Shown: piece by piece, positions 9,402 to 31,709 of the stretch
Layout: each line of letters opens with the position of its first letter
Position numbering within the stretch: the first letter of the stretch is position 1
NCBI RefSeq assembly: GCF_001550095.1
Contig: NZ_LRUC01000003.1
Location: 1 to 64,000, forward strand
DNA: 64,000 nucleotides
Reading direction: 5' to 3'
From: Celeribacter ethanolicus
GTDB lineage: Bacteria; Pseudomonadota; Alphaproteobacteria; Rhodobacterales; Rhodobacteraceae
The notes under the pieces: model-generated
Told to the model about the DNA's origin: nothing
Seen by the model: only the letters and a program-made list of their open reading frames with translations
Databases searched by the model: none
Position numbers and translations under genes: made by a program

Positions 9402-9449
9402 ATTGTGCCCGACAAAAGTCCGACACAAATCCGACGCTTTGCCGACAGT
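9402..9449 (-). repeat. 11-bp tandem repeat array, copy 1
   Basis: On the minus strand four units follow one another at 11-bp spacing, each starting GTCGG: GTCGGCAAAGC, GTCGGATTTGT, GTCGGACTTTT and GTCGGGCACAA. A 27-base core (9409-9435) is identical, in inverted orientation, to 31666-31692. The array lies between the converging thioredoxin-like and response-regulator genes. Function unknown. Confidence 0.75.
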
Positions 9450-9474
9450 CAAAAACAGGGGGGCAGAACCGCCC

Positions 9475-10122
9475 TCAGAACCGCCCTGTCCCCTGCAATA
9501 CCCCATGCTCCATCGCATAGCGCGTCAGGCCCGCGGTCGAGGAAATCCCCAGCTTGCGCTTGATGTTCTTGCGATGGGTCTCGACCGTGCGCACGGAAAT
9601 ATCCAGCGCGGCAGCCACGTCCTTGTTGGATTTGCCCTGCGCCAGTTCCAGAAGGATCGTCGTCTCCCGATCCGTCAGAGGCTCCCGCCCGTCGCGAATT
9701 TTCGTTGGTTTTATAGCGGCTTGCGCGCCGTCGCACAGGTATTTCTCGCCCCGCATCACCGCGTCGATGGCGTCTTTCACTGCCTCGGTCGGTACGTCCT
9801 TCAAAACATAGCCCTTGGCGCCGTGGCTGAGTGCCGCGCCGATATATTCCGGGCCGTCATGCATCGACAGGATGAGGATGCGCGTCTCCGGGCGGCGCTC
9901 CAGCAACAATTCGGTCGCCGTCAGCCCGCCCATCTGGGGCATATTCAGATCCATTAACACAACATCCGGTGCCAACGCCTCCACCCGATCCACCGCTTCC
10001 CGCCCATTGCACAGCGTTCCGACCACTTCGAGATCATCGAAGGTTTCCAGAAGCGCGCGGATGCCCTCGGCCACCATCGGGTGGTCGTCGACAATCAAAA
10101 CGCGAGTCGGTGTCGTCGTCAT
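9475..10122 (-). CDS. NarL/FixJ-type response regulator
   Basis: A 215-residue two-component regulator. The receiver domain (about residues 5-120) has the acidic pair VDDHP, the phosphorylatable aspartate D58 in VVLMDLNMP and the lysine of YVLKDVP. The C-terminal LuxR-type helix-turn-helix reads LTDRETTILLELAQGKSNKD through VRTVETHRKNIKRKL. Its start overlaps the end of the histidine kinase gene by 4 bp (ATGA), so they form one operon. A likely target is the TRAP operon whose promoter lies beside the kinase gene. Confidence 0.95.
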   Translation of the reverse strand: MTTTPTRVLIVDDHPMVAEGIRALLETFDDLEVVGTLCNGREAVDRVEALAPDVVLMDLNMPQMGGLTATELLLERRPETRILILSMHDGPEYIGAALSHGAKGYVLKDVPTEAVKDAIDAVMRGEKYLCDGAQAAIKPTKIRDGREPLTDRETTILLELAQGKSNKDVAAALDISVRTVETHRKNIKRKLGISSTAGLTRYAMEHGVLQGTGRF

Positions 10123-11537
10123 CTGGCACTTCCTATTGGAGATGGCGGGCGACCGGAGGTCGCGGGCGGAAGGATATGCTTCAACGGTACGGTTGCGTCA
10201 ATGGCGGTGCCGGGGTGCAGCGGTGTGATGGTCAGGCGCCCGTCGAGCTGCTCCATGCGCTCCGCCATGTTTCGAAGCCCCAGTCCCCGCCCGCGTTTGC
10301 CCACATCCAAGGGGTCGAAGCCCCGACCGTTGTCGCAAATCAGAAGCGTCGCGCCCGTGCGGTGCCCCGCGAGTTTCATTGTGACTTCCGTGGCTTGCGC
10401 GTGGCGCTCAATGTTGGTCAGCGCCTCCTGCGCGATGCGGAACAGGGCAATCCGCGCCTCCTCGTCGAGCCGGTTGCGAAACACCACGGTCTCCAGCTCG
10501 GTCCTGATGCCGGTGCGGGCCTCGAACTCTTCCGTCAGCGATTTGAGCGCCGGGCCAAGCCCCAGATCGTCGAGAATGCCGGGGCGCAGGTCGCGCGAGA
10601 TGCGCCGCACCTCACCGATCGCACCGCCCAGCATCTCTACGCCCCGGTCAAGGCTCGCAGGCGCTTTCGGATCGCCCGCGTTGAGCTGCCGCCGTGCGAG
10701 TTCCAAAGCATAGCGCACCCCGACCAGGATCTGGCTGATCCCGTCATGCAACTCGCGCGCCACCCGTCCGCGTTCCTCCTCCTGCGTGTCGAAAATCCGT
10801 TGGGTGAGTTTCTTCAACTTGCCATCCGCCAGCCGCCGTTCGCGAATGGTGATCGTCAGCCCGGACATGAACACCAGAAGCACCGCCGCCATGGTGATCG
10901 CGCCGATATAGCCGAAGGTGCGGGTCACCCGCGTCTCCACCTCGGCGCGGGCTGCGGCGACGGAGCGCAGCACGTCGTCGATGAACACGCCGGTGCCGAT
11001 CGCCCATTGCCAGTCCTGCAAGCCGATGACATAGCTCATCATTTGCGCGTCCTCGCCGGTCGAGGGCTTGGGCCAGAGATAGGAATGATAGCCGCCGCCC
11101 TGACGCGCCAGCCGGATCAGCTCGTCGGTGATGGGCGTGCCGGCACTGTCGGTCATCCCGGCCCAGTTGCGGGTGATCAGCCGGGTGTCGCGCGGCGCCA
11201 CGAGGTTGGTGCCGTCATAGGTGTAGACAAAGAAATACCCGTCCGTGCCATAGGTCATCGCCGCGAGAATTTGCGTGACCCGCAGCTTGGCGTCTTCATC
11301 ATCGGGCGGCGCGGGGCTGTATTCCGTGGTGATCGAATTGCGCGCGAGTTGCAGGTAGTTCTGCAACTCCTGTCGCTTGGCGGAAAGAATTTGGTCTTCA
11401 AGCTCGGCGATTTCCCGTTCGGCCATGGTCCGCGACTGGTGTGCGACCACAAGCGCGATTGCCGCCACCGAGAGGATCAGTGGCAACGTGGCAAGCAGGA
11501 AGAGCTTGCGTGCATAGGTCAGTTCGGGGAGCGGCAA
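10119..11537 (-). CDS. Cache-domain sensor histidine kinase (HisKA_3)
   Basis: A 472-residue membrane sensor kinase. A transmembrane helix at about residues 11-33, an extracytoplasmic Cache-type domain (about 34-205, with GTDGYFFVYTYDGTNLVAP and WQWAIGTGVFIDD) and a second helix at about 208-230 precede the kinase core. The phospho-accepting histidine is H264 in RVARELHDGISQ, typical of HisKA_3 kinases paired with NarL-type regulators. The ATPase domain shows CDNGRGFDP and GRGLGLRNMAERM. Cache domains bind small organic ligands such as carboxylates. With a divergent TRAP operon next door, I infer that the kinase senses the transported compound. Confidence 0.93.
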   Translation of the reverse strand: MPLPELTYARKLFLLATLPLILSVAAIALVVAHQSRTMAEREIAELEDQILSAKRQELQNYLQLARNSITTEYSPAPPDDEDAKLRVTQILAAMTYGTDGYFFVYTYDGTNLVAPRDTRLITRNWAGMTDSAGTPITDELIRLARQGGGYHSYLWPKPSTGEDAQMMSYVIGLQDWQWAIGTGVFIDDVLRSVAAARAEVETRVTRTFGYIGAITMAAVLLVFMSGLTITIRERRLADGKLKKLTQRIFDTQEEERGRVARELHDGISQILVGVRYALELARRQLNAGDPKAPASLDRGVEMLGGAIGEVRRISRDLRPGILDDLGLGPALKSLTEEFEARTGIRTELETVVFRNRLDEEARIALFRIAQEALTNIERHAQATEVTMKLAGHRTGATLLICDNGRGFDPLDVGKRGRGLGLRNMAERMEQLDGRLTITPLHPGTAIDATVPLKHILPPATSGRPPSPIGSAR

Positions 11538-11880
11538 GGCGATGAGGCAGGTCCTTCGGTGATCTTCTGTTGGCCCGGTCGCAGGATAACGTGCCGGGGG
11601 AGAGCGTCAATTCCACGAATTTTTCTGCTGCGCGGCATGAAAATTACGAATTTACAGTGCCGGAAGTCACAAAAAATCCCGGACTGCGTAGTGTTGGGTA
11701 TTTCAACACCGCCTCACCGCCGATAACGTTAACATCACGATTTGTTCGGTTTGTCCGTGAAGGACCCGCCATGTCCGGTTGCAAGCGCGCCTTTCGCGCC
11801 ACTTGCCGGGAGGAAACATGCGCAGGGAAGGGGCCGGACAGACTGCCATCGCCATAGACAATCTTGGGAGGACTTACTCT
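11538..11880. promoter_or_regulatory. Divergent control region of kinase operon and TRAP operon
   Basis: 343 bp without a convincing gene. It contains the perfect inverted repeat GTGTTG-N7-CAACAC (11692-11710), a candidate site for the adjacent NarL-type regulator. An imperfect GC-rich hairpin lies at about 11772-11807, and a strong ribosome site GGGAGG is seen at 11868-11873. No clear -35/-10 pair stands out. Confidence 0.5.
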
Positions 11881-12978
11881 ATGGACCGCCGTTCTTTTCT
11901 GAAAACCTCTGCTCTGGGGGGCGCAACCGCTGCGGCCGCATCGACGCTGGCCGCACCGATGTATGCGCAGGGCAAGCGCACGTTGACCATGGTCACCACC
12001 TGGCCGCGCGGTCTGGCGGGGGTTTGGGATTCCGTCGAACGTTTCGCCGCCAATGTCGATGCGCTGACCGATGGCCAGCTCACCATCGACGCGAAAGCCG
12101 CAGGTGAACTCGTCGGCGGGCTTGAGGTGTTCGACGCCGTGACCGCCGGTCAGGCCGATATGTACCATGGCTGCGAATATTACTTCACCGGCCAACATCC
12201 GGCACTGGCCTATTTCACCACCGTGCCTTTCGGCATGACCGCGCCGGAGATGATGGTGTGGTACTATTCCATGGGCGGCATGGAGCTGCACCACAAGCTG
12301 GGCGAAATCTTCGGCCTCAAGGGCTTCATCGCTGGCCAGACCGGCGGGCAGGGTGGCGGCTGGTTCCGCAAGGAGATCAAATCGCCCTCCGATTTTCAGG
12401 GCCTCAAGTTCCGCATGCCGGGTCTCGGCGGCGAGACCGTGTCGAAGCTTGGCGCCTCCGTGCAGGTGCTGCCGGGCGGTGAGATCTATCAGGCGCTGTC
12501 CTCCGGCGCGCTCGACGGCACCGAATGGATCGGCCCGTGGTCTGATGAGAAGCTCGGCCTGCAAGAGGTCTGTGACTTCTACTATCCGGCGGGCTTCCAC
12601 GAACCGGGCGCGGCGCTTTGCGTGACCACGAACCTCGAAGTGTTCGAAAGCCTGAGCCCGATGCAGCAAAAGGTCATCGAACTGGCCACGGGCGAGTGTC
12701 ACCAGCACAATTATGCGCTCTTCGTGGCCAACAACGGTCCGGCGCTGCAAAGGCTCATTCAGGGCGGTACCCAGCTCAAGGAATTCTCCGACGATGTCTG
12801 GACCGCCTTCGGCATGGCCGCCAAGGAAGTGCTCGATGGCTACATGGGCGACGAGATCTTTGCCGAGATCCGCACCCAGTACGAGGCCTCCATGGCGGCG
12901 ACCTCGGCCTGGATCGGGCGGTCGGACGGCAACTACACTCCGCAGCGCGACCGCGTGATGGCGGCAACCGCGGAGTAA
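11881..12978 (+). CDS. TRAP transporter substrate-binding protein (DctP/TakP type), operon copy
   Basis: A 365-residue periplasmic receptor, collinear with the paralogue at 6490-7584 and alike along its whole length, including the signal region MDRRSFLKTSALGG with the twin arginines. Ligand-domain blocks include TTWPRGLAGVWDSVERF, AGELVGGLEVFDAV, GGWFRKEI and DGTEWIGPWSDE. It heads the operon with the small and large permease genes. A terminator in the 175-bp gap after it would let the receptor be made in excess over the membrane subunits. Ligand unknown; TakP-like receptors bind organic acids. The start follows GGGAGGACTTACTCT. Confidence 0.95.
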   Translation: MDRRSFLKTSALGGATAAAASTLAAPMYAQGKRTLTMVTTWPRGLAGVWDSVERFAANVDALTDGQLTIDAKAAGELVGGLEVFDAVTAGQADMYHGCEYYFTGQHPALAYFTTVPFGMTAPEMMVWYYSMGGMELHHKLGEIFGLKGFIAGQTGGQGGGWFRKEIKSPSDFQGLKFRMPGLGGETVSKLGASVQVLPGGEIYQALSSGALDGTEWIGPWSDEKLGLQEVCDFYYPAGFHEPGAALCVTTNLEVFESLSPMQQKVIELATGECHQHNYALFVANNGPALQRLIQGGTQLKEFSDDVWTAFGMAAKEVLDGYMGDEIFAEIRTQYEASMAATSAWIGRSDGNYTPQRDRVMAATAE

Positions 12979-13004
12979 GCCGTGAAAACGGGATAAAAAA
13001 CGGG

Positions 13005-13034
13005 AAATGCGCGCGGTTTTCGCGCGCATTTTTG
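13005..13034 (+). terminator. Intra-operon terminator between TRAP receptor and membrane subunits
   Basis: AAATGCGCGCG (13005-13015) pairs perfectly with CGCGCGCATTT (13021-13031) around a GTTTT loop, followed by TT. Partial read-through here would give high receptor and low permease expression. Confidence 0.85.
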
Positions 13035-13153
13035 GCTCCGGGCGTTGCTCATCCGGGGCGAGGGGCGTAAAGCGGCCCGACAGATGTAAAATCACCGGAA
13101 TAATATCACTGGGAACGGCTCCTCAACGCAGGAGCCGGGAAGGGGACAACAAT

Positions 13154-14083
13154 ATGGAAGAACAGAGCGGCGGGTCGTTCCTCGGCGCCGTGGTGGACGG
13201 GATCGTGAGCCTTTTCGTCAACCTCGGGCTCGGGTTCTGGCACATCATCTACGCGATCAGCCACCCGAGCCTCTGGCTCGACTGGTCGGACAAGGAAAGC
13301 CTTTTGCGCTTCGTCTATTACGGCGGGTCGAAAGAGCTTTTGTTCGTGTTTTTCGATGTGGTGATCGTGATCACCCTCGTGGGTTTTTTCTATCGGCCGT
13401 TCCTCTGGGCGCTGGTGCGTGGGCTTGAGAAAATCGCCAACACCACGGGCCGGATCGCGGCCTGGGCCGGTCTTCTGATGGTGCTGCAACAGATCATGGT
13501 CGTTTTCCTGCAATCGGTGTTCCGTCAAGGCGAGATCACGATTTCCCCTTTCGGTGGCGGGTTCACCCAATCGGTCGGCTGGTTCGCCGAGAGCCTCAAG
13601 TTTGAGAATGCCCTCGTGGTCGCGCTCTGTGTCTCCTACGCCTTCGTGCAGGGGTCCCATGTGCGGGTCGATCTGGTCTATGCGGGCGTCAAGCACCGCA
13701 CCAAACGCGCCATCGACATGTTCGGCTCGCTGTTCTTCATGCTGCCGGTGGCTTTGCTGACCTGGATGTACGCCTGGTTCTTCCTCTGGCGGCACCTGAT
13801 CACACCGAAGGTCTCGGCCTCCGATGCGCTCGACCGGATGCTGATGAAGGCCCGGATCGTGAAATGGAACGTCGAGACGATCTCCTTCTCCGCGAATGGG
13901 TTCAACGGCTATTTCCTGTTCAAGATCCTGATGTTGTGCTTCCTCGCTCTGGTGATCCTTCAGGCGCTCGCGTTCTTCTACCGCTCCTTCCTCGAATTCG
14001 TGGAGGGCGAGGAAAGCGCCGGGAAATATCGTGACCAAGACAGCCTCGGCGAAGGCGAAGAAGCCTACGAAGGCGCACTCTGA
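13154..14083 (+). CDS. TRAP transporter small permease subunit (DctQ type)
   Basis: A 309-residue inner-membrane subunit with several hydrophobic segments (for example LFVFFDVVIVITLVGFFY, ALVVALCVSYAFVQGSH and MFGSLFFMLPVALLTWMYAW). The block GSHVRVDLVY is the usual DctQ signature. Most DctQ proteins are 160-200 residues, so this one is long; extra N-terminal helices account for it. ATG 13154 follows AAGGGGACAACAAT; the open frame extends upstream through the terminator and is not used. It lies 18 bp before the large permease gene and would form the DctQM complex. Confidence 0.9.
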   Translation: MEEQSGGSFLGAVVDGIVSLFVNLGLGFWHIIYAISHPSLWLDWSDKESLLRFVYYGGSKELLFVFFDVVIVITLVGFFYRPFLWALVRGLEKIANTTGRIAAWAGLLMVLQQIMVVFLQSVFRQGEITISPFGGGFTQSVGWFAESLKFENALVVALCVSYAFVQGSHVRVDLVYAGVKHRTKRAIDMFGSLFFMLPVALLTWMYAWFFLWRHLITPKVSASDALDRMLMKARIVKWNVETISFSANGFNGYFLFKILMLCFLALVILQALAFFYRSFLEFVEGEESAGKYRDQDSLGEGEEAYEGAL

Positions 14084-14101
14084 GAATAAGGCGGATCAGA
14101 T

Positions 14102-16456
14102 ATGTTTTTCGGACTTGATGGCGTAGAAATCGGCCTCATCATCGTATTCCTCTGCCTGTTCGGCGGTATCCTCACCGGCTTCCCGGTGGCCTTTGCCATC
14201 GGTGGTGCGGGGCTCATGTCCTTCGGGATCATCGCAGCCTTGGACAGCGCGGGCATCCTCGTCCATGAGGCGCTCGACACCGGCTCGCAGGCCTACCGCG
14301 ATCTGGTGAACGGAGGCGTGAACCCCAATATGATCTCGCATTTCCGATACCCGGATTTGCCAACGGTCTCGGAATCCCTGTTCCCCGGCGGCTGGGAGCA
14401 GGCGGTGGATCGCAACCTGTCCTTTATCGTCAACCGGATGAACGAACGCGTCTTCGCGGGCGCCTCCATCGAGACGCTGCTCGCCGTTCTGATGTTCGTG
14501 ATGATGGGGATCGTTTTGGAACGCTCCAAGATCGCCAACGATCTCCTGACCACCATGGCCCGTGTCTTCGGTCCGCTTCCGGGCGGTCTGGCGGTTTCCG
14601 TGGTGATCGTGGGCGCGTTCCTCGCGGCCTCCACCGGCATCGTGGGCGCGACCGTGGTGACCATGGGCCTTTTGTCCCTGCCGACCATGTTGCGTCACGG
14701 CTATTCGCCACAGCTCGCCACCGGTGTCATCGCCGCCTCCGGCACCTTGGGCCAGATCATTCCGCCCTCCATCGTCATCGTGCTTCTGGGCACGCTCGCG
14801 GGGGACATCTATTCCGCCGCTCAGGAAGCCCGCGCGCAGGCGGTCGGTTGTTCCGATGCGCTGACCTATCTTGGCGAGCCTGCCGTGGTCTCCGTCGGCA
14901 CGCTGTTCCAGGCCGCGATGCTGCCGGGCGTGTTCCTTGCCGGTCTTTATGCGCTCTATGCCTTCGGTTTTGCCATGTTCAACCCGCACAAGGCGCCGCC
15001 GGTGCATCTCGAACACACGAACCATGAGACCATGACCCGTCGCGACGGGCTTTTGTGGATGGTGGCCGTGCCGGTGCTGCTGATCGGGGGCGCGGTGTTC
15101 TCCGGCCAGTTCGGCCTCTCCGGTTCGCAGAACATCCATGTCGCCGAATTCACCGAGGCGGGCGCAACCGCGTCTCTGCGCACCAATGTGTCTGCGCAAT
15201 GTGAGACGGCGATGATCGAGCTGCATGGCCAGAGCGCCTGGGACAAGGCCGTGGCCGAGCAGGCCGCGATCGAAGCCTCGGGCGGGGCGCAGCAATCGGT
15301 GCAGCGCACGCCGGAGCAGATCGAACAGCTTACCGTCGAGGCCATCGCCAATGCGCCCAAACTCGGCACCGGTCTTCTGACCGTGATGGTGATGCTGGCG
15401 ATCACGCTGGCCTTCGGGCGCGGTGTGGCGCCGCTCGCGAACCCGGCGCCGCTTTTGATCGGCGCGGGCGGGATCGTCGCCGCGCTGCTGCTCGACGCGC
15501 TCCTCGTTGGGCCGCAGACCTCTTCGGGTACCGCCTTCGCGATCTACTTCATCCCGTTCATTGCGCTGGCCTACGGGCTCAAGGACGCGGCGAAGCATCT
15601 GTCGAAGAACGAGTTGTTCCGCGTGGTCTTCCCGCCGCTGGTGCTGATCGTCGCCGTGCTCGGCTCGATCCTCGGCGGTGTGACCAACCCGACGCCAGCG
15701 GCCGGTCTTGGGGCCGGGGGGGCGCTTTTGCTCGCCGCCTATCGCAAGCTCGCCGATCACAAGAAGCCGGGCAAGATAATCCTCGGGGCGGCCTTTGCCA
15801 TCGTCGTGATGCTTTTGATTGGCGGCAACTTCGACCTGCGTCTGGGCCGGGGCAATGTGCCGTTTGAGGATTGGGCCGCCTATCTCGTCGCACTCGGCGC
15901 CTATTACTACGCGATGTTCGGCATTCTCTATGCTTGCTGGGTGCTGTTCTCCGACGGCACTCTGGGCATCGTGGTGCGTGAAACGGCCAAGGTCACGTCG
16001 ATGGTCTTCACCATCCTGATCGGTTCGCAATTGCTGAACCTCGTGGTGATCTCCTTCGGCGGCGAGCATTACATCCAGAGCTTCCTGCGCAGCTTCGACA
16101 ACGAGTTCACGGTGTTCCTGCTGGTGATGCTGGTGCTCTTCGTGCTGGGCTTCGTGCTCGATTTCCTCGAGATCATCTACATCGTCGTGCCCATCGTCGG
16201 TCCGGTGATCTACGGCGGGACGATGGATCCGAAATGGGTGACGATCATGATCGCGGTGAACCTCCAGACCTCCTTCCTGACCCCGCCCTTCGGCTTCGCG
16301 CTGTTCTACCTGCGCGGTGTGGCGCCGGCGTCGGTCACCACCGGGCATATCTACAAGGGCATCATCCCCTTCGTGCTCATTCAGGTGCTGGGCCTCGGGA
16401 TCCTCTGGACTTTCCCGGACATCGTCACCATCGTGCCGAACCTTTTGTCGAAATAG
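14102..16456 (+). CDS. TRAP transporter large permease subunit (DctM type), extended form
   Basis: A 784-residue membrane protein that uses the sodium gradient to import the ligand delivered by the receptor. Typical DctM motifs are present, such as GIVGATVVTMGLLSLPTM, SGTLGQIIPPSIV and LQTSFLTPPFGFALFYLRG at the C-terminus. Usual DctM length is about 425-450. Here a hydrophilic insert of about 60 residues (around 60-115) and a long central block (about 305-600) with additional hydrophobic segments separate the two halves. The frame is open throughout, so this is not a frameshift. It ends the operon. Confidence 0.9.
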   Translation: MFFGLDGVEIGLIIVFLCLFGGILTGFPVAFAIGGAGLMSFGIIAALDSAGILVHEALDTGSQAYRDLVNGGVNPNMISHFRYPDLPTVSESLFPGGWEQAVDRNLSFIVNRMNERVFAGASIETLLAVLMFVMMGIVLERSKIANDLLTTMARVFGPLPGGLAVSVVIVGAFLAASTGIVGATVVTMGLLSLPTMLRHGYSPQLATGVIAASGTLGQIIPPSIVIVLLGTLAGDIYSAAQEARAQAVGCSDALTYLGEPAVVSVGTLFQAAMLPGVFLAGLYALYAFGFAMFNPHKAPPVHLEHTNHETMTRRDGLLWMVAVPVLLIGGAVFSGQFGLSGSQNIHVAEFTEAGATASLRTNVSAQCETAMIELHGQSAWDKAVAEQAAIEASGGAQQSVQRTPEQIEQLTVEAIANAPKLGTGLLTVMVMLAITLAFGRGVAPLANPAPLLIGAGGIVAALLLDALLVGPQTSSGTAFAIYFIPFIALAYGLKDAAKHLSKNELFRVVFPPLVLIVAVLGSILGGVTNPTPAAGLGAGGALLLAAYRKLADHKKPGKIILGAAFAIVVMLLIGGNFDLRLGRGNVPFEDWAAYLVALGAYYYAMFGILYACWVLFSDGTLGIVVRETAKVTSMVFTILIGSQLLNLVVISFGGEHYIQSFLRSFDNEFTVFLLVMLVLFVLGFVLDFLEIIYIVVPIVGPVIYGGTMDPKWVTIMIAVNLQTSFLTPPFGFALFYLRGVAPASVTTGHIYKGIIPFVLIQVLGLGILWTFPDIVTIVPNLLSK

Positions 16457-16491
16457 GCAAACCGCTCAGAAAACAGACCCGGAAAAAGACA

Positions 16492-16520
16492 AAGCCTCGC
16501 CTCTTCGGCGGGGCTTTTCT
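16492..16520 (+). terminator. Terminator of the TRAP operon
   Basis: AAGCCTCGCC (16492-16501) pairs with GGCGGGGCTT (16507-16516) with one wobble pair, loop TCTTC, then TTCTT. Confidence 0.88.
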
Positions 16521-16607
16521 TATGGGCAAAAGAATCCCTTGCGTTGTGACTAATGTCTTATAAAAAGACTAGGGTATTTAATCGCAGCCCCGCAAAGGAG
16601 CCCGAAC

Positions 16608-17054: not shown

Positions 17055-17078
17055 GGCTTTCGCCAAAGGCAGAATGAC

Positions 17079-17106
17079 AAAGCGCGGCTCCGAGGGCCAC
17101 GCTTTT
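17079..17106. terminator. Bidirectional hairpin between converging genes
   Basis: AAAGCG-C-GGC pairs with GCC-A-CGCTTT (17079-17105) with one C-A mismatch. Runs of A on the left and T on the right suit termination from both sides. Confidence 0.6.
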
Positions 17107-17116
17107 GGTTTGGGCG

Positions 17117-23693: not shown

Positions 23694-23708
23694 CCAGAGG
23701 TGACCTCC

Positions 23709-24113: not shown

Positions 24114-24130
24114 GCGCAGCGAACGCATGA

Positions 24131-24772
24131 TCAACGGGGCAGGGCGGCGGCTTCGCGGGCCAGCTCCTCGATGGCTTTCCAGTCGCCCTTTTCCACCAGA
24201 TCCGCGGGCGCAACCCAGCTTCCGCCGACGCAGAGCGTGTTGGACAGGGACAGGTAATCGCGAGCGTTTTTCAGAGAAATGCCCCCGGTGGGGCAGAATT
24301 TCATCTGCGGCAGGGGCGCGCCGATGGCCTTGAGCGCAGGTACGCCGCCATTGGCCTCGGCGGGGAAGAATTTTGCAACCGTATAGCCGCGCTCCAGAAG
24401 TTTCATCACGTCTGAGGCGGTGGAGGTGCCCGCCAGAAGCGGCATGTCATGTGCTTCGCAGGCGTCCAGAAGCCGGTCGGTGGCGCCGGGCGAGACGCCG
24501 AATTTCGCTCCGGCGGCCTTCGCGGCGATCACGTCCTCGGGCGTCAGAAGCGTACCGGCGCCGACCACACCGCCTTCGACCTTAGCCATTTCGCGGATCA
24601 CGTCGAGCGCTACGGGTGTGCGCAGCGTCACCTCAAGCGCGGGCAGGCCGCCTGCGACCAGCGCTTCGGCCAGCGGGCGGGCATGGGCCACGTCCTTGAC
24701 GACGAGCACGGGCACGACGGGGGCGAGAGCGCAGACCTCTGCGCATATCTGGCTGGCGTCTTGTGGTGTCAT
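24131..24772 (-). CDS. eda: KDPG aldolase (Entner-Doudoroff)
   Basis: 213 residues of the 2-dehydro-3-deoxy-phosphogluconate aldolase family, splitting KDPG to pyruvate and glyceraldehyde 3-phosphate. The Schiff-base lysine lies in YTVAKFFPAE, the catalytic glutamate in LPALEVTLRT, and the phosphate loop in FCPTGGISLKNA. ATG 24772 follows AGGAGACAGATC; the longer frame runs back through the operator and is rejected. TTAGCGCTAA at 24825-24834, about 53 bp upstream, is shared with edd at 28633-28644. Confidence 0.95.
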   Translation of the reverse strand: MTPQDASQICAEVCALAPVVPVLVVKDVAHARPLAEALVAGGLPALEVTLRTPVALDVIREMAKVEGGVVGAGTLLTPEDVIAAKAAGAKFGVSPGATDRLLDACEAHDMPLLAGTSTASDVMKLLERGYTVAKFFPAEANGGVPALKAIGAPLPQMKFCPTGGISLKNARDYLSLSNTLCVGGSWVAPADLVEKGDWKAIEELAREAAALPR

Positions 24773-24823
24773 GATCTGTCTCCTGATGCGCATGTGGGAG
24801 TCGGTGTGATGCGTTGCGTCAGT

Positions 24824-24834
24824 GTTAGCGCTAA
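24824..24834. promoter_or_regulatory. LacI-type palindrome upstream of eda
   Basis: GTTAGCGCTAA contains the 10-bp perfect palindrome TTAGCGCTAA, typical of LacI-family operators. The same core lies upstream of edd, so one regulator probably controls both Entner-Doudoroff genes. Confidence 0.65.
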
Positions 24835-24980
24835 ATCGACCCGGACGAAAGCCTCTGCGACGGCGGCTCATGCGTCAAAGCCTCTTCGCCTGCGCATTTT
24901 TGTCAAACCACCCCCGCAGGGCTTGTCCGATGTTTGCGCCACCATAGATTAGCGTAACACGCACACAAAGGAGCGCGAAG

Positions 24981-26093
24981 ATGGACACAAAGATCGACAC
25001 CTTGTTCCGACCGTTCACCTACAAGGGCCTGAGCCTGAAGAACCGCATCGTCATGGCGCCGATGACCAGGAGCATGACCAAGGGTGGGATTCCCGGGCCG
25101 GAAAACGCCGCCTATTACGCCCGGCGCGCGGCCCATGAGGTTGGCCTGATCCTGTCCGAGGGTACGGTGATCGATCGTCCGGCGTCGCGTAACGATCCGG
25201 GTATTCCGTTTTTCCACGGCCCTGAGGCCTTGTCGGGCTGGAGCCGGGTGATCGAGGCGGTCCATGCCGCGGGCGGCAAGATGGGGCCGCAGATCTGGCA
25301 TACCGGCTCGACCCGGGCGGGCGCCTGGGAACCCGAGGCGCCGGTCGAGAGCCCGTCTGGGCTTGTCGGTCCGGACGATCCGCGCGGTGTTGCGATGAGC
25401 GAGGCCGATATCGAGGCGACGATTGCCGCTTTTGCGGCCTCGGCCAAGGCGGCGAAAGAGCTGGGCTTTGATGTGGCCGAGCTGCACGGCGCGCATGGTT
25501 ATCTCATGGACCAGTTCTTCTGGGCGGGCACCAACCTGCGCGATGATCGCTGGGGCGGGGCGACCATCGAAGAGCGTTCGCGCTTTGCCGTTGCAGTGGT
25601 TCAGGCGGTGCGCGCCGCCGTGGGGCCGGATTTCCCGATCATCCTGCGTTTGAGCCAGTGGAAACAACAGGACTTCAGCGTCAAACTGGCCGCTGATCCG
25701 GAGGAAATGGAGCGCTGGCTCATGCCGCTCGTGGAGGCGGGCGTCGACATTCTGCATTGCTCGCAACGTCGCTTCTGGGAGCCGGAATTCCCGGAGATCG
25801 ACGGCGAAGAGGGGCTGAACTTTGCCGGTTGGGCCAAGAAGATCACCGGCGTGCCGACGATCTCCGTGGGCTCTGTCGGCCTGTCGGGCGAATTCCTCGC
25901 GGCCTTTGGCGGCGAAAGCTCCGCTGTGACGCCGCTGGATCGGCTTGTGAAGCGGATGGACGCGGAAGAGTTCGACCTGATCGCCGTGGGCCGTGCGCTT
26001 CTGTCCGATTATGAATGGGCTGAAAAGGTCAAACGCGGTGCGGCGGACAAGCTCAAAGGTTTCGAATCTTCCGCGCTTGCCGAATTGGTGTGA
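24981..26093 (+). CDS. Old yellow enzyme family FMN oxidoreductase
   Basis: 370 residues, an FMN-binding TIM barrel of the NADH:flavin oxidoreductase/NADH oxidase family. Seen: LKNRIVMAPMTRSM (FMN-binding N-terminus), QIWHTGSTR, AELHGAHGYLMDQFFWAGTN (family motif with the substrate-binding H-x2-H-like residues) and RWGG. Members reduce activated C=C bonds or nitro groups with NAD(P)H. AAAGGAG precedes the start. It is a single gene divergent from eda; physiological substrate unknown. Confidence 0.92.
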   Translation: MDTKIDTLFRPFTYKGLSLKNRIVMAPMTRSMTKGGIPGPENAAYYARRAAHEVGLILSEGTVIDRPASRNDPGIPFFHGPEALSGWSRVIEAVHAAGGKMGPQIWHTGSTRAGAWEPEAPVESPSGLVGPDDPRGVAMSEADIEATIAAFAASAKAAKELGFDVAELHGAHGYLMDQFFWAGTNLRDDRWGGATIEERSRFAVAVVQAVRAAVGPDFPIILRLSQWKQQDFSVKLAADPEEMERWLMPLVEAGVDILHCSQRRFWEPEFPEIDGEEGLNFAGWAKKITGVPTISVGSVGLSGEFLAAFGGESSAVTPLDRLVKRMDAEEFDLIAVGRALLSDYEWAEKVKRGAADKLKGFESSALAELV

Positions 26094-26099
26094 CCTTTC

Positions 26100-26128
26100 A
26101 AAGCCTTCCGGAGATGGGGAAGGCTTTT
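26100..26128 (+). terminator. Terminator after old yellow enzyme gene
   Basis: AAAGCCTTCC (26100-26109) pairs perfectly with GGAAGGCTTT (26118-26127), followed by T. Confidence 0.8.
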
Positions 26129-26276
26129 CAAGCGCACAGAGATGTGCGACATTGGAAGCCTCGGAACAAGGAGATTTATGCGCAGAAAATCAGCACCGCC
26201 ACCCATGGCATGACGCGCGACCCAATCGGTTCGCATGATTTTCTATGCGCATTTGCGCTTTTTCTGAGGCTTTACC

Positions 26277-26732
26277 ATGACCATTACACATCTGACACTC
26301 CGCCGCTTCGAGGCAGGAGATACCATGGTTCTGTCCCATATCTGGCGCGCGGCGTCGGAGCGGGCGCATCCGTTTTTCAGCCAAGAGCAACTCGATCAGC
26401 AACAAGCCTTGGTGGAGCAAGTCTACCTGCCCAAGGCCGAAACCTGGGTTGCGTTGCGCGGCGCAGTGCCGCTTGGTTTCATCGGGCTGTTGCCCGACGC
26501 AGAGGTGGCCATTATCGGCGGGCTGTTCGTCGCGCCGGAAGCACAGGGGCAGGGCATCGGGCGGATGCTTGTGGACCATGCTCGCAGGCTTAAACATCGT
26601 TTGAGCCTTGAAGTTTACGAGACCAATGCTTCGGCACGCGACTTTTACACCCGGCTCGGCTTTCGCCAGACCGGGCGGCGTGAGGTGGATGACAGCGGGT
26701 TGCCGTACCCGCTGTTGAAACTTGTGCTGTAA
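26277..26732 (+). CDS. GNAT-family N-acetyltransferase
   Basis: 151 residues with the acetyl-CoA loop VAPEAQGQGIGRMLVDHAR (R/Q-x2-G-x-G/A pattern) and the late GNAT segment LEVYETNASARDFYTRLGF. No substrate is indicated. It is a single gene whose stop converges closely with that of edd (17 bp gap). TGAGG lies before the ATG. Confidence 0.88.
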   Translation: MTITHLTLRRFEAGDTMVLSHIWRAASERAHPFFSQEQLDQQQALVEQVYLPKAETWVALRGAVPLGFIGLLPDAEVAIIGGLFVAPEAQGQGIGRMLVDHARRLKHRLSLEVYETNASARDFYTRLGFRQTGRREVDDSGLPYPLLKLVL

Positions 26733-26749
26733 CGCGGGAGGGCGTGCGC

Positions 26750-28579
26750 TCAGAACAGGGAGCACGCCCCTTCGGTGGCCGGTCCGGCATTCTGGCGGAA
26801 GGTTTCGAACAGTTCGCGTCCCATGCCGACGGTGTTTGCGGAGAGATCGACGGTCACCGCCGTGCGTGCCTCGAAACCGTCTTCCAGTACGTCGAGCGTG
26901 CCACTTGCGCCATCGACGCGGACCAGATCGCCGTCTTTGAGTTTCGCAATCGGACCGCCCGTGGCGGCTTCCGGTGAGACGTGAATACAGGCGGGCACCT
27001 TGCCGGACGCACCGGACATCCGCCCGTCGGTGACCAGCGCCACTTTGAGGCCCCGATCCTGCAACACCGCGAGCGTCGGCGTCAGAGAATGCAGCTCCGG
27101 CATGCCATTGGCACGCGGTCCCTGAAAACGGACGACGACCACGGTATCCTCGGTGAATTCCCCGGCCTGAAACGCCTTTTTGACGTCATGCTGATCTTGG
27201 AACACGCGGGCTTTCGCCTCCACCACATGGTGTTCGGGCTTCACGGCGGAGACTTTCATCACGCCACGCCCGAGATTGCCGCGGAGCTCCTTGAGACCGC
27301 CGCTTTTCTGGAACGGATCGGAGGCGGGGCGGAGGATCTTGTCGTTGACGCTTTCGCGTTCCGGCTCCTCGAAGCTGAGCACACCGTCACGCAGTTTCGG
27401 CTCTTTGGTATAAAGCGACAGGCCCTCTCCGGCGACGGTATTGACATCCGCATGGAGCAATCCGGCATCGAGCAACTCGCCGATCAGATAGGACAGACCG
27501 CCCGCGGCGTGGAAATGGTTCACATCGGCAAGCCCGTTGGGATAGACCTTCGCCAGAAGCGGCACCACATCGGAAATCTCTGAGAAATCTTCCAGATCGA
27601 GGATGATTCCGGCGGCGCGGGCCATGGCAGGCAGGTGCAACACGAGGTTCGTCGATCCGCCCGTCGCCATCAGCCCGACAATGCCGTTCACGAAGGCTTT
27701 TTCATCGAGAATGGCGCCTACGGGCGTGTATTCATTGCCAAAGGCGGTGATCTGGAGCGCACGTTTGGCGGCCTCGCGGGTCAGGGCGTCGCGCAGAGCG
27801 GTGCCGGGATTGACGAAAGAGGCGCCCGGAAGGTGCAAACCCATGACCTCCATCAGCATCTGGTTCGAGTTCGCGGTGCCGTAGAAGGTGCAGGTGCCCT
27901 GACCGTGATAGGCCTTCATCTCGCTGTCCATCAACTCGCGGCGGGTGATCTCGCCGGTGGCGAATTTCTGGCGGGCCCTGGATTTTTCATCATTCGAGAT
28001 GCCTGTGGTCATCGGGCCAGCGGGCACAAAGACGGTGGGCACATGGCCAAACGCGGCGGCGGCCATGATCAGGCCGGGGACGATCTTGTCGCAGATGCCC
28101 ATATAGAGCGCCGCGTCATAGCAATTGTGCGACATGGCGATAGAGGCCGAGAGCGCGATCGTGTCGCGGGAAAACAGCGACAGTTCCATGCCGGTCTGAC
28201 CTTGCGTGACCCCGTCGCACATCGCCGGAACCCCGCCCGCGACCTGTGCCGTGGCGCCGTTCTGATGCGCGACCTCGCGGATGATGTCGGGATAATGCTC
28301 ATAGGGCTTATGCGCCGACAGCATGTCGTTGTAGGCGGTGACGATGCCGATGTTGGGGGCGCGACCGTCCGCGAGCGTGGCCTGATCGTCCCCCATGGCG
28401 GCGTAGGCATGGGCCTGATTGCCGCAGGAAAGATGCGCCCGCGCCGGACCTTGCTCTGCCGCTTCCGCGATCCGGGCGAGGTAGGTCTCGCGGGTCGGGC
28501 GGGAGCGTTCGATGATGCGTTGGGTGACGTTTGCGATCTCAGGCGCGATTACGGTGGCGATCCGGGCGTTCGGGGACAT
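26750..28579 (-). CDS. edd: Phosphogluconate dehydratase (Entner-Doudoroff)
   Basis: 609 residues of the IlvD/Edd dehydratase family, converting 6-phosphogluconate to KDPG with an iron-sulfur cluster. Edd-type blocks: [70 protein letters not shown] and [14 protein letters not shown], containing cluster cysteines. The start at 28579 gives the usual family length and an AAAGG site; ATG 28615 would add 12 unconvincing residues. Together with eda it completes the two-step pathway branch. Confidence 0.95.
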
Positions 28580-28632
28580 GACGGGCCTTTTGCTGGTCTG
28601 GCCAAATGGGCACATGGGATGGTCTGAAATTC

Positions 28633-28644
28633 GTTAGCGCTAAC
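28633..28644. promoter_or_regulatory. LacI-type palindrome upstream of edd
   Basis: GTTAGCGCTAAC is a perfect 12-bp palindrome 54-65 bp before the edd start and matches the site upstream of eda. Confidence 0.7.
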
Positions 28645-28861
28645 CTAACCTCCTCGACAGGGAATGTCCATTGTGGCGTGGCGGCTGTTGCCGCCTATGC
28701 TGCACATGCAAGGGGGTTGCTGCAAGCGCATAACGGCTCTTCGCAATTGGCACTCGTCTGCGTCAGTGGTTTTGACCTATAAATCAGCCATCGGGAGGAT
28801 CAACACAATCGCGCCAATGTCGGCACAGACCGGCGGGCCAACACTTGAATAGGTGATCCTG

Positions 28862-29014
28862 ATGACCACACGTACCGTCGTTCAATTTTCCCATCTTGCC
28901 GTCGAAGCCGAAGCCCGCAAACTGCGTGCTCAAGCCATGCGTTCGATGATCAGTGCGACCGGCAAATGGCTTCGTGGCCGGCTGCATGGCGGACGCGCCG
29001 CCGAACTGGCCTGA
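28862..29014 (+). CDS. Small (50 aa) DUF1127-like / RSP_7527-like protein
   Basis: An open frame of 50 codons beginning MTTRTVVQFSHLAVEAEARK and ending GRLHGGRAAELA. An amphipathic start followed by LRAQAMRSMISATGKWLRG resembles the small arginine-rich proteins common in Rhodobacterales, some of which bind RNA or phosphate-regulon factors. AGGTG lies 8 bases before the ATG, and a strong terminator follows 83 bp after the stop, supporting a real single-gene transcript. The exact family is uncertain. Confidence 0.6.
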   Translation: MTTRTVVQFSHLAVEAEARKLRAQAMRSMISATGKWLRGRLHGGRAAELA

Positions 29015-29097
29015 TCAAACTGGCCTCGCGGGGCCAGACCGGACCCGAGCCAAGCACAACAGGCGAAACGCCACTGCCCACGCACCACACCGCTTTG

Positions 29098-29127
29098 AAA
29101 ATCCCGGAAATGCTCCGGGATTTTCGC
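29098..29127 (+). terminator. Terminator after the 50-aa gene
   Basis: AAAATCCCGGA (29098-29108) pairs perfectly with TCCGGGATTTT (29114-29124) around AATGC. Confidence 0.85.
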
Positions 29128-29188
29128 ATTTTGGCCTCATTCTCCCGGCACGTTAACCAAGAAATTGGGGAGACCCCCGGAGGCCGTC

Positions 29189-29800
29189 ATGAAACAGACA
29201 TTCAAAATCGCAGCAGCCCTGATGCTTGCCGTCGCCACCAGCGCCTGCACCATGGAAACCACGTCCCGGGCGGTGCCGTTCGAGCTGCCGCTGGGGGCGG
29301 GAGGCGCAGAGGCCGTGATGATTGCTCCGGATTTCCGTGTCGCAAAGATCAACGTGAGCGTGCCGGACACGCTGACCGTGTCCGAGGAGAACGGCATCAA
29401 GCCGCGCGCCGATATCGTCTGGCGCGAGGACCCGTTCGGCAATCGCTACGAACAGGTCAAATCGGTGATGGAAGCGGGGCTGAACGCAGGTGCTCAGGCG
29501 CTTGACGGCGCGCGCGCGGTGGTGCTTGACGTGCAACTGGTCCGCTTTCATGCCCAGACGCAGAAAGTGCGCTATTCCTCGCTGCCGTCCAAACATGAGA
29601 TCGAATTCCTGCTGACCGTGCGTGACGCCAACACCGGCGCGGTCATCGTGCCCTCGCATATGGTCAACGCGACGTTGAACGCGCTCGGGGGGAATGCCGC
29701 CGTGGCCGCCGACCGTGCGGGGATCACTCAGCGGATGCGGATCGGCGAACATCTTGCAGGCGTGATCTATGGCGAGCTGACCAAGCCGATCGCACTCTGA
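29189..29800 (+). CDS. DUF6778-type lipoprotein
   Basis: 203 residues. A signal peptide with lipobox ends at AVATSAC (about residues 14-20), so the protein is probably lipid-anchored in the periplasm. The middle contains NVSVPDTLTVSEENGIKP and DIVWREDPFGNRYEQV, which I associate with a lipoprotein family seen in Rhodobacterales and of unknown function. GGAGG lies 6 bases before the ATG. Its terminator is merged with the start of the next gene. Confidence 0.75.
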   Translation: MKQTFKIAAALMLAVATSACTMETTSRAVPFELPLGAGGAEAVMIAPDFRVAKINVSVPDTLTVSEENGIKPRADIVWREDPFGNRYEQVKSVMEAGLNAGAQALDGARAVVLDVQLVRFHAQTQKVRYSSLPSKHEIEFLLTVRDANTGAVIVPSHMVNATLNALGGNAAVAADRAGITQRMRIGEHLAGVIYGELTKPIAL

Positions 29801-29830
29801 TCCCTCTTCCGTGCAGATCGAAACAGCGCT

Positions 29831-29861
29831 AAGAGGGCTCTCATGACAGAGCCCTCTTTTT
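29831..29861 (+). promoter_or_regulatory. Perfect hairpin holding the rlmI-type start codon in its loop
   Basis: AAGAGGGCTCT (29831-29841) pairs perfectly with AGAGCCCTCTT (29848-29858); the loop CATGAC contains the ATG at 29843, and a short T run follows. It can act as the terminator of the lipoprotein gene and would also hide the ribosome site of the next gene. Confidence 0.8.
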
Positions 29862-31060
29862 CACTCCCGACCATCCGCCTCAAACCCAAATCCAATGCCC
29901 GCGCAATCCGCCACGGCGCACCTTGGGTCTATGATAACGAGCTGGTCACCGACCGGCGCACCAAGGCGATTGCGCCCGGGACCATCGCGCGCCTCGAAGA
30001 TGCGGAGCAGAATTTTCTGGCCCTCGTGGCGGTCAATCCGAATTCGCGCATTTTTGCCCGCGTGCTCGACCGCGACGAGGCGGGGGTAATCGACGCGGCG
30101 TGGTTCCGCGCCAAGCTCGCGACGGCTCTGGCGCATCGCGAGACCCTGTTCGAAGCGCCTTTCTATCGGCTGGTTCATGCCGAGGCCGATGGTCTTCCGG
30201 GCGTGGTGATCGACCGTTTCGGCGATACCTGCGTGGTGCAGCCCAACGCCGCATGGGCCGATGTTTTGATCGAACCTCTGGCCGAGGCGCTTCGCGAGGT
30301 GACCGGGGGCAAGACCGTGGTGATGAACGGCACGGGGCGGGCGCGCGGTCTCGAAGGGCTTGAAGAGAAAACGGAAATCCTCTCTGGCAAGGTCGACGAA
30401 CCGATCCCTGTGCCGATGAATGGCGCGACCTATATGGCCGATCTCATGGGCGGGCAAAAGACCGGGCTGTTCTACGATCAGCGTCCGAACCATGCCTTTG
30501 CCCAGCGTCTGGTCGCGGGCAAAAAGGTTTTGGATGTGTTCTCCCATGTCGGTGGGTTTGCGCTGGCCTCTCTCGCAGGTGGTGCGGCCTCGGCGCTGTC
30601 GGTCGACAGCTCGGCCGCAGCCCTCGATCTCGCTGAAAAAGGCGCAGACGCGATGGGGAAATCGGCCGTGTTTTCAACGCGCAAAGGCGATGCTTTCGAT
30701 GTCATGGCGGCTTTGGCGGAAGAGGATGAGACATTCGACGTGGTGATCTGCGATCCGCCCGCGTTTGCGCCGTCGAAACCCGCGCTGGAAAAAGGTCTGC
30801 GCGCCTATGAACGTGTCGCCCGCATGGCCGCGCCGCTGGTGCGGGAGGGCGGGTATCTGGGGCTTTGCTCTTGTTCGCATGCGGCGGATTTGGAGAAGTT
30901 TCGCACCGCCTGTAACCGTGGGATCGGGCGCGGTGTCGGGCATCTTGGACGCTCGGCGCAACTGATCCATACGGGGTTTGCCGGTGCCGATCATCCGCTG
31001 ATGCCGCAGCTCGCGGAGAGCGGTTATTTGAAGGCGCTGTTCTATCGGATCCTGCCGTGA
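29843..31060 (+). CDS. RlmI-like class I rRNA cytosine methyltransferase
   Basis: 405 residues, with an N-terminal PUA-type domain (TIRLKPKSNARAIRHGAPWVYDNE), a linker domain and a Rossmann methyltransferase domain. The SAM site is VLDVFSHVGGFALASLAGGA and the catalytic motif VVICDPPAFAPSK; LCSCSH carries a cysteine. RlmI methylates a cytosine of 23S rRNA; the precise target here is not shown. No alternative start exists in frame before the PUA domain, so the ATG in the hairpin loop must be used. The PIN-domain gene overlaps its stop codon. Confidence 0.88.
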   Translation: MTEPSFSLPTIRLKPKSNARAIRHGAPWVYDNELVTDRRTKAIAPGTIARLEDAEQNFLALVAVNPNSRIFARVLDRDEAGVIDAAWFRAKLATALAHRETLFEAPFYRLVHAEADGLPGVVIDRFGDTCVVQPNAAWADVLIEPLAEALREVTGGKTVVMNGTGRARGLEGLEEKTEILSGKVDEPIPVPMNGATYMADLMGGQKTGLFYDQRPNHAFAQRLVAGKKVLDVFSHVGGFALASLAGGAASALSVDSSAAALDLAEKGADAMGKSAVFSTRKGDAFDVMAALAEEDETFDVVICDPPAFAPSKPALEKGLRAYERVARMAAPLVREGGYLGLCSCSHAADLEKFRTACNRGIGRGVGHLGRSAQLIHTGFAGADHPLMPQLAESGYLKALFYRILP

Positions 31061-31596
31061 AAGTGTTGCTCGACGCCTGCGTGCTCTACCCGACGGTGAT
31101 GCGGGAAGTGCTTTTGGGCGTCGCGAAACGCGGGCTTTATACGCCGCTGTGGTCGGCGCGCATTCTGGAAGAATGGGCGCGGGCCGCGCGCAAGCTCGGC
31201 CCCGGAGGCGAAGCGCAGGCGCGCGGCGAAGTGGCGCTTGTGCGGGCGGAGTTTCCGAAGGCAGAAGTCAAGGAACACAAAGGCTTAGAGGCGCGTCTTT
31301 ATCTGACGGACGAGAATGATATTCACGTTCTGGCCGCCGCGATTGCGGGCGGCGCAGAGGCGATCGTGACCGTGAATGCGCAGGATTTTCCGCGTCATAT
31401 TTTGGCCGAAGAAGGGCTTGAGCGCTGGGACCCGGACGGGTTTCTCTGGCGGCTCTGGTCGGATCGTCCCGAGGAGGTGGCGGCGGCGGTCGAAGAGGTG
31501 CGGGCGGAGGCCGAACGGCTTTCGGGCGAGGCCTGGGACGTGCGGCGGCTTTTGAAAAAGGCGCATCTGCCCCGGCTGGGCAAGGCGCTTGGCTGA
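31057..31596 (+). CDS. PIN-domain protein (RSP_2648-like)
   Basis: 179 residues starting with GTG inside the previous stop (GTGA), so translation is coupled to the methyltransferase. The PIN fold has acidic residues in VLLDACVLYP and YLTDENDIHVLAAAIAGGAEAIVTVNAQDFP, matching the metal-binding sites of PIN nucleases. VapC toxins are usually about 130 residues and paired with an antitoxin; none is adjacent. Pairing with an rRNA methyltransferase suggests RNA processing, but that is inference. Confidence 0.8.
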   Translation: MKVLLDACVLYPTVMREVLLGVAKRGLYTPLWSARILEEWARAARKLGPGGEAQARGEVALVRAEFPKAEVKEHKGLEARLYLTDENDIHVLAAAIAGGAEAIVTVNAQDFPRHILAEEGLERWDPDGFLWRLWSDRPEEVAAAVEEVRAEAERLSGEAWDVRRLLKKAHLPRLGKALG

Positions 31597-31665
31597 TCCG
31601 TTTTTGAGTATTTTTGCCATCGGAAAACAGAAGGCGGTTTCGCTCTGAAACGGCTGATTTTGGCT

Positions 31666-31709
31666 GTCGGATTTGTGTCGGACTTTTGTCGGACATCCGT
31701 CGGGCACGG
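31666..31709 (+). repeat. 11-bp tandem repeat array, copy 2
   Basis: Four units at exact 11-bp spacing: GTCGGATTTGT, GTCGGACTTTT, GTCGGACATCC and GTCGGGCACGG. The first 27 bases match 9409-9435 in inverted orientation. It lies between the converging PIN and M48 peptidase genes, overlapping nothing coding. Confidence 0.75.

What the first reader, a model, noticed from the sequence alone, without database searches (positions are those of the whole stretch)
9402..31709. 11-bp tandem repeat (GTCGGACTTTT type) in two gaps between converging genes
Arrays at 9402-9449 (minus) and 31666-31709 (plus) each have four units starting GTCGG at exact 11-bp spacing, and share a 27-base identical core in inverted orientation. 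Both lie between converging genes. One-turn spacing suggests a protein-bound element (a boundary, anti-collision or termination site) rather than random repeats. I do not know a described element of this kind.
Basis: seen in the sequence. Interest (0 to 1): 0.75.

Follow-up and report, generated by a model that had tools for sequence, protein, structure and literature searches.

The report
Four-turn repeat arrays scattered on chromosomes
The two repeats belong to a family of about 44 short four-unit DNA arrays scattered over this marine bacterium's genome, and some related bacteria carry similar arrays with a different core word; they look like landing sites for an unidentified protein, not like signals reserved for colliding genes.

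Summary
Both arrays are exact: four GTCGG words at 11-bp steps. The genome (genus Celeribacter, by contig identity of G397) holds 44 such arrays, 37 with four exact words; within-array spacer identity is 39%, so they are not slipped minisatellites. Of 394 family genomes, about one per genus, 24 have 10 or more GTCGG matches and 3 others have GGCTG arrays of the same layout. Presence is patchy: 9 of 20 species of the genus. Arrays keep place and orientation between species while spacers scramble. Convergent gaps are enriched here (13 of 38 intergenic arrays) but not in G269 plus G035 (9 of 33). Half of the arrays lie in same-strand gaps, 36 with and 35 against transcription. Best reading: head-to-tail binding sites, one subunit per turn, for an unidentified accessory protein. 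MraZ was tested and rejected; leading-strand bias is explained by composition. Protein and role remain unknown.

The parts
9409..9446 (-). Array A: four GTCGG units at 11-bp steps (GTCGGCAAAGC GTCGGATTTGT GTCGGACTTTT GTCGG)
9406..9459 (-). Array A with the flanking positions that are conserved over 43 arrays of this genome (G/C at -13, A/T at -8 to -6, C/G then T/G at -2/-1; A/G, C, A/C after the last unit)
   Evidence: position-wise base counts
31666..31703 (+). Array B: four GTCGG units at 11-bp steps (GTCGGATTTGT GTCGGACTTTT GTCGGACATCC GTCGG)
31653..31706 (+). Array B with the conserved flanking positions
9103..9342 (+). Flanking gene, Thioredoxin_3 domain (context only)
9475..10122 (-). 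Converging gene, response regulator with LuxR-type DNA-binding domain (context only)
31057..31596 (+). Flanking gene, PIN_3 domain (context only)
31727..32404 (-). Converging gene, peptidase M48 (context only); its downstream gap was compared across the genus

Best explanation
Each array is a binding site for a sequence-specific protein that sits head to tail along one face of the DNA, one subunit (or DNA-binding module) per helical turn and four per site. The sites are spread over the chromosome, mostly between genes, and belong to an accessory system: several sister species lack them, and other genera have the same 4 x 11-bp layout with another core word. I think the bound protein most likely marks or organises the chromosome (anchoring, compaction, or telling the chromosome from other DNA) and does not end or regulate transcription of the neighbours. 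SHOWN: layout, number, distribution, conservation of place, change of core, patchy presence. INFERRED: that a protein binds, its head-to-tail mode, and the chromosomal role. In this genome the spacer centres are A/T-rich half a turn from each word, where the minor groove would face the same side; in G035 spacers are often G/C-rich, so that detail is not general.
For: Four units: 37 of 44 arrays have four exact words, 5 have one mismatch, 2 have two; the next upstream slot matches GTCGG at 0-1 of 5 letters in 40 of 44; within-array spacer identity is 0.39, unlike slippage repeats. A scan for any 5-mer repeated four times gives 37 hits at period 11, 2 at 12, 2 at 15 and none at 8, 9, 10, 13, 14 in 871 kb; these regions had been chosen around the arrays, so the point is the lack of other cores and periods. 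38 of 43 distinct arrays are intergenic although about 13% of the sampled DNA is non-coding. Of 13 distinct arrays fetched from G405, 10 lie at the place and in the orientation of a G000 array; of 14 from G397, 6 or 7; of 20 from another genus (G064), 1. In 18 such pairs the core is 98% and the spacers 69% identical, against 56% for unmatched arrays. GGCTG arrays of the same layout occur in 3 other genera, the first unit often GGGTG in two of them. The PepN in-gene array needs no insertion in the three homologue alignments shown. A near relative (G406) keeps 5 four-unit matches and has a decayed array at the M48 gap.
Against: No protein was identified and no binding was measured. The 98% core figure is inflated because arrays were found by their cores, and the 18 pairs reuse four G000 arrays. 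The next downstream slot is above random: 3-4 of 5 letters in 13 of 44. The in-gene array of a CobI-like protein codes for a segment that is 5-7 residues longer than in three of four homologue alignments shown, compatible with insertion; three other in-gene arrays were not tested. Avoidance of divergent gaps holds in G000 (4 of 38, P 0.007) but not in G269 plus G035 (11 of 33). Chromosome-only placement is weak: G035 has no counted array on about 0.6 Mb outside its 3.79-Mb contig (about 5 expected, P 0.005; one 2-mismatch three-unit match there was taken as chance), G398 gives P 0.13, and the nature of those contigs is unknown. Even spacing is slight (P 0.02 in G269, incomplete list; P 0.07 in G035). 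Leading-strand orientation (32 of 44) is no evidence: composition alone predicts 0.68. Many sister species do without arrays, so any role is dispensable.
Confidence: 0.45

Rival explanations
1. A mobile or selfish interspersed repeat (REP/BIME-like), copied around the genome and tolerated between genes; the shared unit-by-unit consensus in this genome reflects recent spread.
For: Position-specific spacer consensus within G000; species-specific families and patchy presence; shorter gaps where array-free species lack the array (by eye); longer segment in the CobI-like protein; avoidance of genes.
Against: No REP-type palindrome; core outlives spacers and flanks at orthologous places and orientation is kept; the PepN array needs no insertion; period and unit number are the same in the GGCTG families. 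Target duplications were not looked for.
Confidence: 0.2
2. A transcription terminator, roadblock or anti-collision element at gene 3' ends, acting through a bound protein or through Rho (the complementary strand has CCGAC words every 11 nt).
For: In G000, enrichment in convergent gaps (13 of 38, P 0.006 by gap bases) and depletion in divergent gaps (4 of 38, P 0.007); in G000 8 of 9 distinct sense-oriented arrays in same-strand gaps begin within 49 bp of the upstream stop codon.
Against: Neither tendency in G269 plus G035 (9 convergent and 11 divergent of 33; convergent P 0.84); 36 sense against 35 antisense in same-strand gaps over all sets; array between E2 and lpd-like genes (operon inferred, not shown); RNA folds z -0.8 to -2.0; no Rfam match at the arrays; only 44 sites in a whole genome.
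Confidence: 0.15
3. Operators of one transcription factor (PhoB/OmpR-like tandem boxes) controlling a regulon.
For: One-turn direct repeats resemble head-to-tail winged-helix sites (recalled); in G269 plus G035 11 of 33 intergenic arrays are in divergent gaps. I raised this rival from 0.08 to 0.10 for that reason.
Against: Depleted from divergent gaps in G000 (4 of 38); the 22 neighbours of eleven G000 sites that I scanned (2 without a Pfam match) share no theme that I could see; 5 of 44 arrays are in predicted genes.
Confidence: 0.1
4. An RNA element of 3' untranslated regions.
For: Closeness to stop codons in some contexts; an imperfect hairpin between units 3 and 4 is possible in this genome.
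Against: No strand preference relative to transcription (36:35); the hairpin words are not kept in the GTCGGTA and GGCTG families (read by eye); weak folding z-scores.
Confidence: 0.04

Closest known systems
Chromosome marking sites (Noc sites, SlmA sites, MatS, KOPS; all recalled)
   Same: Tens of short sites or more dispersed over one chromosome, each set bound by one protein.
   Different: Those are single palindromes or short words; here four direct units at one-turn steps. In G269 arrays occur at both GC-skew switches (964-1128 kb, 2.97-3.06 Mb), but one stretch, 2.34-2.97 Mb, is sparse (3 arrays where about 12 are expected by my count from an incomplete list).
Tandem operator boxes: MraZ (AAAGTGKN3)3 and C-protein (GTGTTAN5)2 in Mollicutes (PMC5282649, passages seen); Pho boxes (recalled)
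   Same: Short direct repeats at 10-11 bp steps read by one protein.
   Different: Described there at promoters of a few operons. MraZ itself was tested here and not supported.
[quoted passage not shown]
   Different: One per plasmid origin; here tens of copies per genome. A nick site was not looked for.
REP/BIME-type extragenic repeats (recalled)
   Same: Dispersed, mostly intergenic, species-specific consensus.
   Different: REPs are imperfect palindromes; these arrays are direct repeats.

Membership tests
Minisatellite / slippage tandem repeat | Units alike over their whole length, variable unit number | tested here: not met
   Spacer identity within arrays 0.39 on average over 44; upstream slot matches 0-1 of 5 letters in 40 of 44. 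Many viral-contig hits of the same pattern are such repeats.
MraZ operator | Array at the mraZ promoter; site presence follows the protein | tested here: not met
   mraZ in 29 of 30 genomes, the array-free ones included; G142, 84% complete, has none. In 9 upstream stretches the only 5-mer repeated three times at period 9-12 belongs to a G269 array about 0.7 kb from mraZ.
Convergent-gene boundary or terminator | Confined to or strongly enriched in convergent gaps | tested here: not met
   13 of 38 in G000, 9 of 33 in G269+G035, 2 of 15 in G064, 8 of 26 in the GGCTG genomes.
Intrinsic terminator | G+C hairpin plus T run formed by the element | tested here: not met
   Folds of both strands of both window arrays z -0.8 to -2.0; the conserved upstream tract is A or T about equally. 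By eye, L035 and L053 have a separate terminator-like hairpin beside the array.
Rho utilisation site | Rho-dependent RNA 3' ends downstream | not testable with these tools
   Needs RNA 3'-end data with Rho inhibited.
KOPS/Chi-like polar sequence | Orientation bias beyond base composition | tested here: not met
   32 of 44 observed in G000 against 0.68 expected from intergenic composition, 0.83 from single GTCGG words.
Noc/SlmA/MatS-like marking site | Regional exclusion or confinement relative to origin or terminus | tested here: inconclusive
   Arrays occur at both skew switches of the 3.60-Mb G269 contig, but 2.34-2.97 Mb is sparse; list incomplete (100 of 114 matches), origin and terminus from GC skew only.
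Noc/SlmA/MatS-like marking site | A dedicated binding protein | not tested
   No candidate found other than MraZ, which failed.
REP/RAYT-type mobile repeat | Palindromic repeat and an associated transposase | tested here: inconclusive
   No REP-like palindrome; transposase not searched.
Plasmid- or phage-borne element | Array present on plasmids or phages | tested here: not met
   G000 consensus only: 0 of 72,556 plasmid and 0 of 50,697 phage records cover 80% of it. In a capped viral-contig scan one (L446) of 120 stretches looks family-like.

The most novel reading that the evidence does not exclude
Some Rhodobacteraceae carry an accessory chromosome-marking system whose protein reads four one-turn units, and whose five-letter word has changed between genera (GTCGG, GTCGGTA, GGCTG) with sites and protein changing together genome-wide; species that lose the protein lose all sites by drift. 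I found no description of such a chromosomal site.
Probability: 0.3. Interest if true: 0.85.

Novelty: new variant of a known kind. Interest (0 to 1): 0.6.

Why it matters
A genome-wide set of phased sites with lineage-specific words, gained or lost between sister species, is a natural experiment: Celeribacter species with and without arrays can be compared to find the protein and ask what chromosomes do without it. It could also become a worked case of how a protein and tens of scattered sites change specificity together.

Tried and rejected
Leading-strand function: the bias exists but composition explains it. MraZ as binding protein: not supported. Plasmid or phage origin: no support. Known RNA family: only two tRNAs in the window at gathering scores. 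Papers: five searches aimed at such an element listed none that describes it: searches found 0 papers; one search listed 3, of which I saw title and start of abstract only, on other subjects. sought analogues: 2, 1, 0 and 0 papers; of two I saw passages. Empty sites in G410: six places aligned, no array in any, but the intergenic DNA was too diverged for a clean empty site. Genus tree: M48 DNA from 15 of 19 species, 4 rows lost by my motif filter; array-bearing and array-free species interleave but 3 of 12 inner branches are well supported. DNA-uptake words were set aside because sites are about 53-115 kb apart on average; not tested further.

Rows dropped before counts: one duplicated G000 array (L069, flanks identical to L040; still in the 44); three register duplicates among the G397/G405 loci; 4 arrays at locus edges; in-gene arrays (G000 5, G035 6, G064 3, G397/G405 1) from intergenic shares. 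In G269 only 12 arrays passed my 17-of-20 GTCGG filter, which misses its GTCTG and TTCGG forms. Loci were given for 15 of 17 G405 and 15 of 45 G397 matches.

Full report
THE OBSERVATION. Both arrays exist as described. Each is four exact GTCGG words at 11-bp steps; they share a 27-mer in opposite orientation that occurs 6 times in the genome (counted). Shuffled windows do not give this (0 of 100 shuffles reach the 4 matches seen). Both lie between converging genes.

GENOME-WIDE. A three-unit pattern with up to 2 mismatches has 94 matches in the 4.2-Mb genome against 2 for the reversed pattern. I grouped them into 44 arrays, all found again with at least 18 of 20 core letters in the fetched regions: 37 with 20, 5 with 19, 2 with 18. 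One pair (L040, L069) has identical flanks, probably a duplicated assembly stretch, so 43 are distinct. The next 11-bp slot upstream does not continue the array (0-1 of 5 letters in 40 of 44); downstream it agrees somewhat above random (3-4 letters in 13 of 44) but with no exact fifth word. Units have position-specific spacers (CAAAGC, ATTTGC/T, ACTTTT) and the flanks add G/C then A/T positions upstream and A/G-C-A/C downstream, about 54 bp in all. A scan for any core at periods 8 to 15, in regions chosen around the arrays, shows period 11 almost alone (37, against 2 at 12 and 2 at 15).

TAXONOMIC RANGE. In 394 family genomes, about one per genus, the four-unit pattern with up to 2 mismatches matches in 95; by my count 24 have 10 or more matches (up to 162; one array can give several matches) and the reversed control has 10 or more in 3. 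Matches of several of the 24 were not listed, so I have not seen the arrays of all of them. The 3 control genomes (G211, G349, G377) carry GGCTG arrays with the same 4 x 11-bp layout. Spacer words differ by genus (GTCGGTATCAC, GTCGGCATCAC, GTCGGACTTTT). Over the class, with up to 1 mismatch, 8 of 385 genomes match: 4 of 5 of the family and 4 of 380 outside it, the latter with 1-2 matches each, two of the four plainly simple repeats.

PATCHY PRESENCE. Within the genus 9 of 20 species have matches (57, 45, 25, 20, 17, 14, 5, 3, 1) and 11 have none. For one array-free species, G410, a 400-kb sample has no four-unit period-11 array of any core. G406, the nearest to the window's species by M48 identity (92%), has 5 four-unit matches, 13 three-unit matches against 3 control, and a degraded array at the M48 gap. 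I read this as decay after loss; that is inference.

CONSERVATION OF PLACE. At the window's M48 gap the array is present with the same orientation and four units in G405 and G397. In the 200 nt read after the stop codon none of the other 16 species shows a full array; these include the array-bearing G398, G399 and G400, and at least three species have another neighbour there. More widely, 10 of 13 distinct G405 arrays, 6 or 7 of 14 G397 arrays and 1 of 20 G064 arrays sit where a G000 array sits, in the same orientation in each case counted. This compared the fetched loci with the 44 fetched G000 regions only. In 18 pairs the core is 98% identical, spacers 69%, upstream 30 bases 57%, downstream 30 bases 36%; unmatched arrays agree at 56% of spacer letters. 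Detection by core inflates the first figure, but keeping place and orientation while spacers approach the unmatched level points to selection on the GTCGG words and their phasing. Five arrays lie in predicted genes. In PepN the array-coded segment aligns without an inserted stretch in the three homologues shown. In the CobI-like protein it is 5-7 residues longer than in three of four homologues shown, which would fit insertion. The other three were not tested.

GENE CONTEXT. G000: 13 convergent, 12 + 9 same-strand (array against and with transcription), 4 divergent, 5 in genes. Convergent 13 of 38 intergenic is above the 15.8% share of gap bases (P 0.006) and divergent is below (P 0.007). G269 plus G035: 9 convergent (P 0.84) and 11 divergent of 33, so neither tendency is general. 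G064: 2 convergent of 15. GGCTG genomes: 8 of 26. G397/G405: 7 of 26, not independent of G000. Same-strand gaps: 36 with and 35 against transcription over all sets. The place most widely kept (L066) is between a 2-oxoacid dehydrogenase E2 gene and a dihydrolipoamide-dehydrogenase-like gene, with counterparts in G405, G064 and an uncultured Rhodobacteraceae genome; an operon there is inferred. Genes come from my own simple gene finder, so starts are approximate.

CHROMOSOME-SCALE PATTERN. In G269, a single 3.60-Mb contig, 68 arrays read from an incomplete list (100 of 114 matches) lie all round, slightly more evenly than random (P 0.02), yet 2.34-2.97 Mb holds 3 where about 12 are expected by my count; G035, 33 arrays, P 0.07. 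Orientation follows local GC skew in G000 (32 of 44), but the base composition of the arrays predicts 68%, so I draw nothing from it. G035 has no counted array outside its main contig (about 5 expected, P 0.005; one weak match there was taken as chance), G398 gives P 0.13.

MECHANISM. Words one turn apart, four per site, fit a protein lying head to tail along one face of DNA. Proteins that read 10-11-bp direct repeats include MraZ and C-proteins (PMC5282649, passages), and four 11-bp repeats form the bind locus of a rolling-circle plasmid (PMC3387028, one passage). MraZ was tested: present in 29 of 30 genomes including array-free ones, and its upstream stretches carry no such array but for one 0.7 kb away in G269. 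The factor should be an accessory gene; it was not found. Because sites ignore transcription direction, occur in same-strand gaps and flank genes without a common theme, I favour a chromosomal marking or organising role over termination or gene regulation, at a little under even odds for the whole statement and less for the exact role.

VERDICT. The array family is real, lineage-variable and, by the five searches named, not found in print. The convergent-gene reading is a tendency of this genome only.

Noticed in passing
window 31606-31613 (+), 9359-9366 (-): Octamer GAGTATTT: 43 copies in 871 kb of this genome, 29 within 60 nt after a stop codon (median distance 11 for non-genic copies); permuted octamers range 0-30 copies. 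A second gene-end motif.
   Followed up: partly
G000 C10:95965-130355 and C48:207682-242072 (L040, L069): Array with identical flanks and an mraZ gene at the same distance on two contigs: a duplicated stretch or an assembly artefact (reported contamination 4.18%).
   Followed up: no
L379-L387 (upstream of mraZ): A long leader before mraZ looks conserved by eye in most of the nine stretches; recalled as possibly related to the UpsM small RNA of Rhodobacter, not checked.
   Followed up: no
window 6490-7584 and 11818-12978: Two similar predicted proteins, both with MDRRSFLKTSALGG near the start, likely TRAP-type binding-protein paralogues, on either side of array A.
   Followed up: no
L402, L434, L462, L484, L487, L495, L502 (viral contigs) and L118 (Phycisphaeraceae): G+C-rich contigs with four GTCGG units at 11 bp and similar but unlike-each-other spacers, different from the Rhodobacteraceae arrays; shared by viral contigs and one planctomycete record.
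   Followed up: no
L446 (IMG/VR contig, GTCGGTATGAC type): The only one of 120 viral-contig stretches with an array that looks like the Rhodobacteraceae family, perhaps a prophage edge.
   Followed up: no
L033, L044, L052 (in-gene arrays of G000): Three in-gene arrays are read antisense in the same frame and give similar peptides (ARHLSDALPTLFRP, ARRLSDISPTQIRP, ARRLSDTNPTQILP) in unrelated proteins.
   Followed up: partly
G269 C1 2.34-2.97 Mb: A stretch with 3 arrays where about 12 are expected (my count, incomplete list), with mixed GC skew and genes mostly on one strand.
   Followed up: no
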